A DNA stretch of 64,000 bases from Pseudomonadota bacterium (GTDB taxonomy: Bacteria > Pseudomonadota > Alphaproteobacteria > Rhizobiales > Xanthobacteraceae), in NCBI GenBank assembly GCA_018240595.1, contig JAFEFL010000025.1:310001-374000 (forward strand), in the 5' to 3' direction. The position numbers were made by a program, and so were the translations under genes. This document shows positions 34,982-39,386 of this stretch, in pieces. Each line of letters opens with the position of its first letter. The stretch's first letter is position 1. Under the pieces are notes generated by a model, which saw only the letters and a program-made list of their open reading frames with translations, had not been told where the DNA came from and ran no database searches.

Positions 34982-36010
<1,029 letters not shown>

Positions 36011-36093: not shown

Positions 36094-36690
36094 TCAGAGG
36101 ACCATTGGCACGATGCTGACGACCAGCAGTAAGGCCATGACGATGTTGAAGGTTCTGGCGTGGCGCGGATTGGCCAGGAGGCCGCGCAGCGCCACCCCGA
36201 AGCCTGTCCAGGTGACGACGGTGCCCACCGTGGCCAGGACCTCGACGGCGAGCACGATCAGGACGTCCTTGAGCTGGTGCTCGGGCCGCACATAGAGCGC
36301 GATCACGGTCAGGGCCATGACCACGGCCTTCGGATTGACCCACTGAAAAGCAGCCGCCTGCAGGAACGTCATCGGGCGGCCGAGATCGACCTTGGCGCCG
36401 CTGTCGGGGCGCGAATTGGCGACCTTCCAGGCGAGCCACAGCATATAGAGCGCGCCGGCGATCTTCAGCGCCGTCTGCAAACCCGGCGCCGCGGCAAAGA
36501 TGGCGCCAAGCCCGGCAGCGGCGGCAACCACGAGAACGACAAAGCCCGCGGTGATCCCGGCCATGTGCGGAACCGTCCGCATGAAGCCGAAATTCACGCC
36601 CGAAGCCGTGACCATGATGTTGTTCGGCCCGGGCGTGAACGCCGTCACGAAGACGAACAGCGTCAGCGCCGCAAAGACGTCATACGGCAT
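36094..36690 (-). CDS. LysE/RhtB family amino acid exporter
   Basis: Six-span translocator (198 aa). The N-terminal FVTAFTPGPNNIMVTASGVNFG is the family signature, and AGALYMLWLAWKVANS and FLQAAAFQWVNPKAVVMAL follow. Its ATG begins immediately at the ilvH stop, so it is translated with ilvBH and lies between ilvH and ilvC. That location makes a branched-chain amino acid (or norvaline/homoserine-like side product) the most sensible export substrate. This is inference. Confidence 0.9.
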   Translation of the reverse strand: MPYDVFAALTLFVFVTAFTPGPNNIMVTASGVNFGFMRTVPHMAGITAGFVVLVVAAAAGLGAIFAAAPGLQTALKIAGALYMLWLAWKVANSRPDSGAKVDLGRPMTFLQAAAFQWVNPKAVVMALTVIALYVRPEHQLKDVLIVLAVEVLATVGTVVTWTGFGVALRGLLANPRHARTFNIVMALLLVVSIVPMVL

Positions 36691-37251
36691 TTACATCGTG
36701 TCCGGACCACGCGCGATCGCCACGATGCCGGTGCGGGACACCTCGACCAGACCGAGCGGCAGCATCAGCGCGACGAACTGCTCGATCTTTTCGCTCTTGC
36801 CGGTGATCTCGAAAATGAAGCTCTCGGTGGTGGCGTCGATGACGCGGGCGCGGAAGGCGTCCGCCAGGCGCAGCGCCTCGACGCGCTCGTCGCCCTTGCC
36901 CCTCACCTTCACCATCGCCAGCTCGCGCTCGATCGAACGGCCCGACAGGGTCATGTCGACGACGCGGTGCACCGGCACGAGGCGATCGAGCTGGTTCTTG
37001 ATCTGCTCGATCACCATCGGCGTGCCGGTGGTGACGACGGTGATCAGCGACTGGTGCTTGGCGTGCTCGGTCTCCGACACCGTCAGCGACTCGATATTGT
37101 AGCCGCGGCCGGAGAACAGGCCGATGACGCGGGCCAGTACGCCCGGTTCGTTGTCGACCAGCACCGACAAGGTGTGGGTCTCCGGCTTCTGCACATTGGT
37201 CGCGGTCGGGTAATGCGACGTCGACGACGGGATGTTGGCGTTGGCGTTCAC
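36691..37251 (-). CDS. ilvH: acetolactate synthase small (regulatory) subunit
   Basis: ACT-domain regulatory subunit (186 aa from the chosen start) that activates IlvB and confers valine feedback inhibition. ETHTLSVLVDNEPGVLARVIGLFSGRGYNIESLTV is the ACT domain. The C-terminal half is the ALS small-subunit domain. I chose the GTG at 37251 because AAGGA lies 8 bp upstream. The ATG at 37278 has no Shine-Dalgarno and falls inside the palindromic repeat. Follows ilvB by about 100 bp. Confidence 0.93.
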   Translation of the reverse strand: MNANANIPSSTSHYPTATNVQKPETHTLSVLVDNEPGVLARVIGLFSGRGYNIESLTVSETEHAKHQSLITVVTTGTPMVIEQIKNQLDRLVPVHRVVDMTLSGRSIERELAMVKVRGKGDERVEALRLADAFRARVIDATTESFIFEITGKSEKIEQFVALMLPLGLVEVSRTGIVAIARGPDTM

Positions 37252-37272
37252 GAGTTTGATCCTTGTCAGCGC

Positions 37273-37343
37273 TGTCATCGTCCGCGAAGGCGGACGATCC
37301 AGCAAGTATTCAAGAGCCGGGTCCCCGCCTTCGCGGGGACGAC
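37273..37343. repeat. palindromic intergenic repeat element (copy 2), between ilvB and ilvH
   Basis: Two hairpins: ATCGTCCGC-GAAG-GCGGACGAT (37277-37298) and GTCCCCGC-CTTC-GCGGGGAC (37321-37340). On the minus strand the order and flanks (GGATCG...CGATGACAG) match copy 1 at 25671-25769. It sits inside an operon, directly upstream of the ilvH ribosome-binding site, so it will be present in the mRNA. Confidence 0.75.
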
Positions 37344-37350
37344 GGCGTGA

Positions 37351-39129
37351 TTAAACCAGCATCTTGCCTTCCTCGGTGATGGCGTCGTCGAGCGACACGC
37401 CGGAGTCACCGAGGATCATTTCGTTGTGCGCCTTGCCCGACGGGATCATCGGGAAGCAGTTTTCCTTCTGATCGACGACGCAATCGAACAGCACCGGGCG
37501 GTCGATATCGATCATCTCCTTGATGGCGTGATCGAGATCGCCCGGCTTCTCACAGCGGATGCCGACGGCGTGCATGGCCTCGGCGAGCTTGACGAAGTCC
37601 GGCAGCGCCTCGGAGTAGCTCTCCGAATAGCGGCTGCCGTGCAGCAGTTCCTGCCACTGGCGCACCATGCCCATGTAGCTGTTGTTGAGGATGAAGATCT
37701 TGATCGGCAAGCGGTACTGCACCGCCGTCGACAATTCCTGCATCGTCATCTGCACCGAGGCTTCGCCGGCGATGTCGATGACCAGCGATTTGGGATGCGC
37801 GAGCTGCACGCCGACCGAGGCCGGCAGGCCGTAGCCCATGGTGCCGAGGCCGCCGGAGGTCATCCAGCGGTTCGGCTCGTTGAAGTGATAGAACTGCGCC
37901 GCCCACATCTGGTGCTGACCGACTTCGGTCGTGATGTAGGTGTCGCGATCCTTGGTCAACTCGAACAGCCGCTGAATGGCGTATTGCGGCTTGATCACCT
38001 CGTTCGACGGCCGGTAGGCCAGCGACTTGCGGGCGCGCCACTTGTCGATCTGCTTCCACCAGTCGCCCAGCGCCTTCTTGTCGGCCTGCTTCTTCTCCGC
38101 CTTCCACATGTGCAGCATGTCTTCGAGCACATGCGCGCAGTCGCCAACGATCGGGATATCGACGTGGATGTTCTTGTTGATCGACGACGGGTCGATGTCG
38201 ATGTGGATCTTCTTCGAGCCCGGCGAGAAGGCGTCGATGCGGCCGGTGATGCGGTCGTCGAAGCGCGCGCCGACGCAGACCATGACGTCGCAGTCGTGCA
38301 TCGCCATGTTGGCTTCCAGCGTGCCGTGCATGCCGAGCATGCCCATCCACTGCGGATCGGCCGCCGGGAAGGCGCCGAGACCCATCAGCGTCGAGGTGAT
38401 CGGGAAACCGGTCGTCTTGACCAGTTCGCGCAGCAATTGACTGGCGTGCTTGCCGGAATTGATGACGCCGCCGCCGGTATAAAAGATCGGCTTCTTCGCC
38501 CGTGCCATGAGTTCGACCGCAGCCTTGATCGCGGCGCTGTCGCCCTTGACCTTCGGGTGATAGCCGGTGTGCGGAAACTCCTTCGGCACCGAATAGGTGC
38601 CGGTGGCGAACTGCACGTCCTTCGGGATGTCGATGACCACCGGACCCGGACGCCCGCTGGCGGCGATATGGAAGGCCTCGTGCAGGATGCGCGGCAGGTC
38701 CTCGACCCGCTTCACCAGGTAATTGTGCTTGGTGCAGGGCCGGGTGATGCCGACCGTATCGCACTCCTGGAAGGCGTCGTTGCCGATGAGATGCGTCGGC
38801 ACCTGGCCGGTGATGCAGACCAGCGGGATGGAGTCGCAGAGCGCGTCGGTCAGGCCGGTGACGGCGTTGGTGGCGCCCGGTCCGGACGTCACCAGGACGC
38901 AGCCGACCTTGCCGGTCGAGCGGGCATAGCCCTCGGCGGCGTGGACCGCGCCCTGTTCGTGCCGGACGAGGATGTGCCGGACTTCCTTCTGGGCAAACAG
39001 CGCATCGTAAATCGGAAGCACGGCGCCGCCGGGATAGCCGAACAGGTGCTTCACGCCCTGATCGGCGAGCGCCTGGATGACCATCTCCGCGCCGGTCATT
39101 TCACGGGTCGATGCCGTTTCCTTCGTCAT
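37351..39129 (-). CDS. ilvB: acetolactate synthase large subunit
   Basis: TPP-dependent catalytic subunit (592 aa): condenses pyruvate with pyruvate or 2-oxobutyrate. The catalytic Glu is in RHEQGAVHAAEGYARSTG, the FAD/TPP central domain around FYTGGGVINSGKHASQLL, and the TPP-pyrophosphate/Mg motif in VIDIAGEASVQMTMQELSTA...NNSYMGMVRQWQ. The start is set at MTKETAST, preceded by AAGGAAG. The longer frame from 39213 would run through the attenuator hairpins and is rejected. Preceded by the ilv leader peptide. Confidence 0.97.
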   Translation of the reverse strand: MTKETASTREMTGAEMVIQALADQGVKHLFGYPGGAVLPIYDALFAQKEVRHILVRHEQGAVHAAEGYARSTGKVGCVLVTSGPGATNAVTGLTDALCDSIPLVCITGQVPTHLIGNDAFQECDTVGITRPCTKHNYLVKRVEDLPRILHEAFHIAASGRPGPVVIDIPKDVQFATGTYSVPKEFPHTGYHPKVKGDSAAIKAAVELMARAKKPIFYTGGGVINSGKHASQLLRELVKTTGFPITSTLMGLGAFPAADPQWMGMLGMHGTLEANMAMHDCDVMVCVGARFDDRITGRIDAFSPGSKKIHIDIDPSSINKNIHVDIPIVGDCAHVLEDMLHMWKAEKKQADKKALGDWWKQIDKWRARKSLAYRPSNEVIKPQYAIQRLFELTKDRDTYITTEVGQHQMWAAQFYHFNEPNRWMTSGGLGTMGYGLPASVGVQLAHPKSLVIDIAGEASVQMTMQELSTAVQYRLPIKIFILNNSYMGMVRQWQELLHGSRYSESYSEALPDFVKLAEAMHAVGIRCEKPGDLDHAIKEMIDIDRPVLFDCVVDQKENCFPMIPSGKAHNEMILGDSGVSLDDAITEEGKMLV

Positions 39130-39176: not shown

Positions 39177-39198
39177 AAAAAAGGCCCGCGAAGGGCCA
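39177..39198 (-). terminator. ilv attenuator terminator
   Basis: On the minus strand GGCCC-TTCGC-GGGCC is followed by TTTTTT, a textbook intrinsic terminator, between the ilv leader peptide and ilvB. It is the off-state of the attenuator. Confidence 0.85.
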
Positions 39199-39199
39199 T

Positions 39200-39251
39200 G
39201 TTCGGACACTCACTGTGGGTGCCCCGCGGGCTACCCAGCCAGTGTCCGAAC
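39200..39251 (-). promoter_or_regulatory. ilv attenuator leader stem (alternative RNA structure)
   Basis: Two 11-nt arms, GTTCGGACACT and AGTGTCCGAAC, pair perfectly around the leader-peptide stop codon. Between them lies GCCCGCGGGGC, whose GCCCGCG can also pair with the 3' arm of the terminator. The first arm lies within the leader-peptide codons, so ribosome position would decide which structure forms. The exact switch order is inferred. Confidence 0.7.
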
Positions 39252-39281
39252 CTTACCTACGAGGATAATAATGTTGCGCAT
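39231..39281 (-). CDS. ilvL: ilv leader peptide
   Basis: A 16-residue open frame on the minus strand: MRNIIILVGKVRTLAG, then TAG. Five consecutive codons are Ile, Ile, Ile, Leu and Val, the three end-products of the pathway encoded downstream. It is followed by an 11-bp leader stem and a T6 terminator before ilvB, so shortage of any branched-chain aminoacyl-tRNA would stall the ribosome and relieve termination. The Shine-Dalgarno is weak (AAGGAAAG is rather far upstream). Confidence 0.8.
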   Translation of the reverse strand: MRNIIILVGKVRTLAG

Positions 39282-39386
39282 TGCGGATATGGCCCGAACT
39301 TTCCTTGCGCGCCTTATAGGAGCCGGGTTTTGCCCGGTCAAGCGCTAACTGCGAGGGTAATACCGGCGCTGCGGCCCGGCAAGAGC

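What the first reader, a model, noticed from the sequence alone, without database searches (positions are those of the whole stretch)
39177..39281. Compact ilv attenuator with a 16-residue Ile-Ile-Ile-Leu-Val peptide
MRNIIILVGKVRTLAG, an 11-bp alternative stem and a GGCCC-loop-GGGCC-T6 terminator lie within 105 bp before ilvB. All elements of multivalent attenuation are visible. The leader start codon lacks a good Shine-Dalgarno, which may be part of the control.
Basis: partly seen in the sequence, partly recalled or inferred. Interest (0 to 1): 0.6.

Follow-up and report, generated by a model that had tools for sequence, protein, structure and literature searches.

The report
Branched-chain amino acid attenuator before ilvB
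A short stretch of RNA ahead of the genes for making isoleucine, leucine and valine encodes a tiny peptide and a transcription stop signal that together very probably sense supply of these amino acids; this is a known kind of switch, but across more than a hundred related bacteria it lacks the competing RNA fold that textbooks say makes such switches work.

Summary
On the minus strand, 39281-39231 encodes MRNIIILVGKVRTLAG. It is followed by an 11-bp hairpin (39251-39241/39210-39200) and a GGCCC/GGGCC-T6 terminator (39197-39177), 48 nt before ilvB. A covariance model built only from 19 congeners finds it as the sole hit in the 4.9-Mb genome (E 2e-15). It belongs to a widespread alphaproteobacterial ilv leader: 107 of 133 ilvB upstream regions have leader ORF plus terminator. 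The Rfam "sRNA" Atu_C8 (RF02502) is the same element in Rhizobiaceae (29 of 30 hits sit directly before ilvB). Control codons are rare ones (GTA 64% of leader Val versus 2% in window genes). So it is a new member of a known kind: ribosome-mediated attenuators.

The 11-bp stem is not an alternative to the terminator; both form together. A test that recovers a stall-dependent competing fold in six of seven E. coli attenuators finds none here or across the 107 relatives. What is conserved is a strong hairpin carrying the leader stop codon, starting about 4 nt after the last Ile/Leu/Val codon. How a stalled ribosome blocks termination is unresolved; a steric model is suggested but weakened by an E. 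coli control.

The parts
39313..39341 (-). Promoter: -35 TTGACC (39341-39336), 17-nt spacer, -10 TATAAG (39318-39313); transcription start inferred near 39306
   Evidence: Sequence; the CTTGAC core of the -35 hexamer is invariant and a TATAA-like -10 is present in nearly all of 20 congeners aligned. The consensus scan missed it because it requires T at the last -10 position.
39231..39281 (-). Leader ORF, 16 codons MRNIIILVGKVRTLAG, stop TAG at 39233-39231; no Shine-Dalgarno at normal spacing
   Evidence: equivalent ORFs with an Ile/Leu/Val run in 107 of 133 ilvB upstream regions.
39258..39272 (-). Control codons ATT ATT ATC CTC GTA (Ile4-Ile5-Ile6-Leu7-Val8)
   Evidence: family leader runs use GTA 64%, ATT 69%, CTT 46% versus 2%, 9%, 5% in window genes.
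39200..39251 (-). P1 hairpin: 11-bp stem 39251-39241/39210-39200, apical pairs including GCCC 39231-39228/GGGC 39224-39221; the leader stop codon lies in its apical part
   Evidence: covariation in the genus (90.9% paired, 0/500 shuffles, slid versions at most 48.7%) and in Rhizobiaceae.
39177..39197 (-). Intrinsic terminator GGCCC-TTCGC-GGGCC followed by T6
   Evidence: terminator and T6 nearly invariant in the genus.
37351..39129 (-). ilvB, acetolactate synthase large subunit (regulated gene)
   Evidence: NCBIfam NF006581 1151 bits over cut-off 974.
36691..37305 (-). ilvN, acetolactate synthase small subunit
   Evidence: NCBIfam NF008864 224 bits over cut-off 119.
34982..36001 (-). ilvC, ketol-acid reductoisomerase, probable end of the operon
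   Evidence: NCBIfam NF004017 562 bits over cut-off 336; co-transcription inferred from orientation and spacing.

Best explanation
This is a ribosome-mediated transcription attenuator of the ilvB-ilvN-(exporter)-ilvC operon that reads the charging of Ile, Leu and Val tRNAs. A transcript starting near 39306 is translated from ATG 39281. When the three amino acids are plentiful the ribosome runs to the stop codon, which lies inside the apical part of hairpin P1, so P1 is held open. RNA polymerase then makes the terminator (39197-39177) and stops, releasing a roughly 130-nt leader RNA. When any of the three is short the ribosome stalls on ATT ATT ATC CTC GTA. P1 then folds directly ahead of it, between ribosome and polymerase, and more polymerases read through into ilvB. 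Shown here: the elements, their conservation, P1 covariation, rare-codon bias, gene context and family-wide geometry. Inferred: translation, termination, the starvation response and the operon. Unresolved: the physical step by which the stalled state prevents termination.
For: Elements at exact coordinates. Leave-one-out covariance model: single genome hit, E 2.2e-15. 107 of 133 ilvB upstream regions carry an Ile/Leu/Val leader ORF plus terminator, with narrow stop-to-terminator spacing. RF02502 matches in 76 of 150 Hyphomicrobiales genomes, 0 of 14 controls; 29 of 30 examined loci lie directly before ilvB. Covariation of P1. A hairpin enclosing the stop codon in 107/107, starting a median 4 nt after the last Ile/Leu/Val codon, mean z -4.5. 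Rare control codons. Attenuation through a leader CDS is reported for the Caulobacter ilv operon with ribosome-profiling data (PMC4117421), and an ilvIH cis-regulatory element is listed for S. meliloti citing Vitreschak 2004 (PMC2573895).
Against: No competing antiterminator is predicted for Ile/Leu/Val stalls, so the usual switch is not demonstrable from sequence. The start codon has no Shine-Dalgarno. No expression data exist for this organism. About 26 of 133 relatives lack a detectable terminator before ilvB.
Confidence: 0.88

Rival explanations
1. Classical four-region attenuator: P1 is the 1:2 protector. A stalled ribosome opens it and frees 39231-39221 (GCCCGCGGGGC) to pair with the terminator arms (39196-39193 and 39190-39184), an 11-bp antiterminator.
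For: The 11 pairs exist in the window and dominate (P 0.99) if the ribosome masks RNA down to 39234, that is with its A site at codon 13. The stop codon lies in the P1 apical loop, as I recall for the 1:2 hairpin of E. coli trp. Six congeners keep 9-10 of the 11 pairs.
Against: For stalls at codons 4-8 P1 stays folded and the terminator has probability about 1. The pairing is not conserved: 1-7 of 11 pairs in more than half of the congeners, including the closest relative L039 with 6. Stall-minus-stop competition is about zero across 107 relatives, versus about +0.5 to +1.0 in six of seven E. coli leaders (his about +0.1).
Confidence: 0.3
2. Steric antitermination: P1 folds ahead of the stalled ribosome, loops out about 50 nt and so brings the ribosome so close to RNA polymerase that the terminator hairpin has no room to form.
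For: With P1 folded and the terminator formed, P-site to polymerase spacing would be a median 31 nt (IQR 29-32) at Ile/Leu/Val stalls versus 43 nt (41-45) with the ribosome at the stop codon. Published limits: collided state at 37 nt or less, minimum 28-29 nt (PMC11711091). A trailing ribosome halves termination at pyrL in vitro (PMC10135430).
Against: The same calculation gives 33-36 nt with the ribosome at the stop codon for E. coli thr, leu, ilvGMEDA and ilvBN, where termination does occur, so the margin is small. The comparison was made after seeing the data and ignores hairpin volume.
Confidence: 0.2
3. The element is mainly a trans-acting small RNA (as Rfam's name for Atu_C8 implies), with termination before ilvB constitutive.
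For: RF02502 is filed as an sRNA. S. meliloti rnTrpL shows that a released attenuator RNA can act in trans (PMC10117765). Copies occur before an MFS transporter and before a second ilvB.
Against: Position before ilvB, Ile/Leu/Val codons, rare-codon bias and stop-codon geometry are all unexplained by a pure sRNA.
Confidence: 0.06
4. Chance: a short ORF and a terminator of unrelated function.
For: Short ORFs with hydrophobic runs are common in principle.
Against: Conservation across the order and a leave-one-out E of 2e-15.
Confidence: 0.005

Closest known systems
Rfam RF02502 Atu_C8, 'Rhizobiales sRNA'
   Same: Same place before ilvB, leader ORF with Ile/Leu/Val run, hairpin with the stop codon in its loop, terminator; an Agrobacterium relative scores 121 bits.
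   Different: The window element scores 22.6 bits, under the gathering score of 50; P1 sequence differs, and the P1-terminator spacer is 2 nt here versus longer in Rhizobiaceae. Rfam types it as an sRNA gene, not a leader.
Caulobacter crescentus ilv operon attenuator (Tarleton et al. 1994, cited in PMC4117421)
   Same: Leader CDS with branched-chain codons and an attenuator before acetolactate synthase genes in an alphaproteobacterium.
   Different: Original paper not held, so its proposed antiterminator could not be compared; Caulobacteraceae relatives L108 and L137 have similar anatomy with other sequences.
S. meliloti ilvIH cis-regulatory element (Vitreschak et al. 2004, cited in PMC2573895)
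   Same: Same gene, same order of bacteria.
   Different: Predicted only; the paper is not held, so the structure could not be compared.
E. coli ilvGMEDA and ilvBN attenuators
   Same: Leader peptide with Ile/Leu/Val codons and an intrinsic terminator.
   Different: E. coli leaders show a stall-dependent fold that competes with the terminator (stall index up to 0.75 and 1.0; about 0-0.1 at stop); the alphaproteobacterial family shows no such difference. E. coli leader peptides have 32 residues, here 16.

Membership tests
Ribosome-mediated (leader-peptide) attenuators | Short ORF rich in codons of the pathway's amino acids, directly before the operon | tested here: met
   IIILV run before ilvB-ilvN-ilvC; conserved in 107 of 133 relatives.
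Ribosome-mediated (leader-peptide) attenuators | Intrinsic terminator between leader ORF and first gene | tested here: met
   39197-39177, nearly invariant in the genus.
Ribosome-mediated (leader-peptide) attenuators | Antiterminator mutually exclusive with the terminator, freed by stalling at control codons (defines the classical E. coli subtype; not required of every leader-peptide attenuator) | tested here: not met
   Masked folding and competition index, with E. coli leaders as positive controls; no conserved competing helix in A2 or A3 beyond weak 5-pair ones. Folding predictions only. The claim kept is that it works as an attenuator, not that it has the textbook switch.
Ribosome-mediated (leader-peptide) attenuators | Measured response to amino acid starvation | not testable with these tools
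   No expression data for this organism.
Rfam RF02502 Atu_C8 | Score at or above the gathering threshold (50 bits) | tested here: not met
   22.6 bits, E 0.034.
Rfam RF02502 Atu_C8 | Continuity with members: same synteny, ORF, hairpin and terminator | tested here: met
   29 of 30 loci before ilvB; intermediate scores across the order.
Alphaproteobacterial ilvI/ilvB leader family (Caulobacter, S. meliloti) | Leader directly before ilvB/ilvI in alphaproteobacteria with branched-chain codons | tested here: met
Alphaproteobacterial ilvI/ilvB leader family (Caulobacter, S. meliloti) | Structure as proposed in the original papers | not tested
   Tarleton 1994 is not held; Vitreschak 2004 did not appear in any library search.

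The most novel reading that the evidence does not exclude
The alphaproteobacterial ilv leaders (including Atu_C8) are attenuators without an antiterminator. The conserved hairpin ahead of the control codons folds when the ribosome stalls and brings the ribosome against RNA polymerase, so that the ribosome itself, not a rival RNA fold, keeps the terminator from forming.
Probability: 0.2. Interest if true: 0.75.

Novelty: new member of a known kind. Interest (0 to 1): 0.35.

Why it matters
The locus itself is ordinary: one more ilv attenuator. Two wider points are worth keeping. Rfam's Atu_C8 'sRNA' is very probably the leader of ilvB and should be annotated as a cis-regulatory attenuator. And a family spanning the Hyphomicrobiales and reaching Caulobacteraceae seems to lack the competing antiterminator that defines textbook attenuation, which makes it a natural test of whether a stalled ribosome can block a terminator directly.

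Tried and rejected
(1) An upstream GGGCCAT near the inferred transcription start (39293-39287) that could pair with ATGGCCC at the terminator: absent in congeners, rejected as chance. (2) GCCCGCG.GGGC antiterminator (39231-39221): real in the window but not conserved in more than half of the congeners; kept only as a rival. (3) Conserved 5-pair GTCCG/CGGGC between P1 3' arm and terminator 3' arm: explained by both arms being conserved for other reasons; weak. (4) Rfam at gathering threshold: no match at the site. (5) Steric spacing model: attractive partition at 37 nt, but E. coli leaders terminate at 33-36 nt by the same measure, so downgraded. (7) Tarleton 1994 not held; a literature search for an earlier link between Atu_C8 and ilv found none, which does not prove there is none. 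(8) A mixed alignment with distant families (A4) aligned P1 poorly and was not used.

Full report
What was checked. The finding lies on the minus strand, 5' to 3' from 39281 to 39177, directly before ilvB (39129-37351). The leader ORF reads MRNIIILVGKVRTLAG with TAG at 39233-39231. The 11-bp stem is GTTCGGACACT (39251-39241) with AGTGTCCGAAC (39210-39200). The terminator is GGCCC-TTCGC-GGGCC followed by T6 ending at 39177. A good promoter lies upstream: TTGACC, 17 nt, TATAAG (39341-39313), conserved in congeners. ilvN and ilvC follow in the same orientation. RNA of this region folds better than all 200 shuffles, z -4.2.

Is it more than chance. The organism belongs to the genus Pseudolabrys or very near it: a Pseudolabrys MAG encodes a 99% identical IlvB (L068). 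In 20 aligned sequences of the genus, the window included, the upstream region aligns from promoter to U-tract, with leader peptides such as MARNIITLVVKVRTQAR and MLRNIITLVVRFRTQPRQP. A covariance model built from the other 19, leaving the window out, finds the window site at 39284-39177 with 95.6 bits and nothing else in the 4.9-Mb genome.

How widespread. Of 133 distinct ilvB upstream regions, 107 have an ORF with an Ile/Leu/Val run followed by a terminator before ilvB. They include Rhizobium, Agrobacterium, Mesorhizobium, Ochrobactrum, Devosia, Methylobacterium, Microvirga, Bosea, Bradyrhizobium and Caulobacteraceae. About 26 lack a detectable terminator, among them Azorhizobium, Ancylobacter and Parvibaculum. 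From start codon to U-tract nearly all measure about 98-118 nt, so the 105 nt of this one are normal.

A known family under another name. Rfam RF02502, 'Atu_C8, Rhizobiales sRNA', matches the window weakly (22.6 bits, E 0.034, gathering score 50). Searched over 150 genomes of the order it matches 76, none of 14 controls. Of the 30 loci fetched, 29 have ilvB directly downstream. In an Agrobacterium relative the 121-bit match starts 2 nt after the leader start codon and ends before ilvB. The Atu_C8 consensus itself reads AUG-AUU-AUU-CUU-GUG-GUG as codons. I conclude that Atu_C8 is the ilv attenuator RNA. No paper in the held library makes this link, but the library is partial.

Structure evidence. 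In the genus, P1 and terminator pair in 90.9% of cells. Covariation exceeds all 500 shuffles, and sliding the partner drops pairing to at most 48.7%. The clearest compensatory change (G-C to A-U, 11 and 8 sequences) may be one or a few events. In 30 sequences of Rhizobiaceae and allied families P1, the apical hairpin with the stop codon in its loop, and the terminator are supported likewise, 34 double-change cells versus 11 expected. In all 107 leaders a hairpin encloses the stop codon. It starts a median 4 nt after the last Ile/Leu/Val codon and ends a median 4 nt before the terminator; mean z is -4.5.

Codons. The leader runs use codons that are rare in the window's genes: Val GTA 64% versus 2%, Ile ATT 69% versus 9%, Leu CTT 46% versus 5%. 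Strong codon bias is typical of attenuator leaders, although rarity alone is not the full explanation (PMC1183508).

The 11-bp stem and the terminator do not overlap; two nucleotides separate them. Folding with the ribosome masked to 12 nt past the A-site codon start gives P1 and terminator together, with terminator probability about 1, for every stall on codons 4-8. Only with the A site at codon 13 does a competing 11-bp pairing (39231-39221 with the terminator arms) take over. As a control I measured how far other pairing can compensate for loss of the terminator in seven E. coli leaders. Stalls at control codons gave maxima of 0.74-1.0 in thr, ilvGMEDA, ilvBN, pheA and trp, 0.39 in leu and 0.30 in his; ribosome-at-stop gave -0.13 to 0.19. 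In the 107 leaders of this family the median difference between stall and stop is -0.04, and in the window it is reversed (0.34 versus 0.76). So a textbook antiterminator is not supported as a general feature of this family. These are folding predictions; kinetic or protein effects could hide one.

How it may work. The conserved layout is: control codons, then at once a strong hairpin with the stop codon in its loop, then at once the terminator. A ribosome that reaches the stop must unfold P1; one stalled on the control codons lets P1 fold in front of it. Counting mRNA with P1 folded, a formed terminator would leave a median 31 nt between P site and polymerase for stalled ribosomes and 43 nt for ribosomes at the stop. 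Published structures put collided complexes at 37 nt or less, with a minimum of 28-29 nt (PMC11711091), and a trailing ribosome reduces termination at pyrL from 21.5% to 9.9% (PMC10135430). This suggests that the stalled ribosome itself might exclude the terminator. Against it, four E. coli leaders terminate with the ribosome at the stop at 33-36 nt by the same measure. I rate this model about 0.2.

Start codon. There is no Shine-Dalgarno at normal spacing here or, by inspection of the alignment, in most congeners. In Caulobacter 75.4% of genes start without one and translate equally well (PMC4117421), so nothing points to a control role.

Verdict. It is a new member of a known kind, ribosome-mediated ilv attenuators of alphaproteobacteria. 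The claim that all elements of the switch are visible is not supported. The broader result, that the family as a whole shows no competing antiterminator, is the part worth testing.

Noticed in passing
Rfam RF02502 hits, e.g. L129 2313-2432: Rfam's Atu_C8 'sRNA' coincides with the ilvB leader ORF, hairpin and terminator in 29 of 30 loci examined; it looks misfiled as an sRNA gene.
   Followed up: yes
L013 1501-1621 (G127 C2:433741-433861), also L167: A strong Atu_C8-like copy (85 bits) with leader MMIAIDMVVVGRRMGTAA lies between a carB-like gene and an MFS transporter, not before ilvB; possibly an attenuator for an exporter.
   Followed up: partly
L166 (G023 C1049:7949-8069): A second copy of the leader in one genome precedes a second, 60% identical ilvB paralogue.
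   Followed up: yes
window 36094-36690, minus strand: A LysE/RhtB-type amino acid exporter ORF lies between ilvN and ilvC, in the probable operon under this attenuator; it might export branched-chain amino acids.
   Followed up: no
window 39310-39294 and congeners: A block GCGCAAYGAAAGT right after the -10 element is conserved in most congeners, near the inferred transcription start and upstream of the leader start codon; function unknown.
   Followed up: no
L059, L060, L062, L065, L066, L072, L074, L075, L077, L079, L080 and others: About 26 of 133 relatives, including Azorhizobium, Ancylobacter and Bosea sp. 117, show no terminator before ilvB, suggesting loss or replacement of the attenuator.
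   Followed up: no
Rhizobiaceae leaders, e.g. L120, L129: A -10-like element lies about 7-8 nt before the leader ATG and the Rfam match starts at the ATG, so the leader mRNA may be leaderless there, as reported for S. meliloti trpL.
   Followed up: partly
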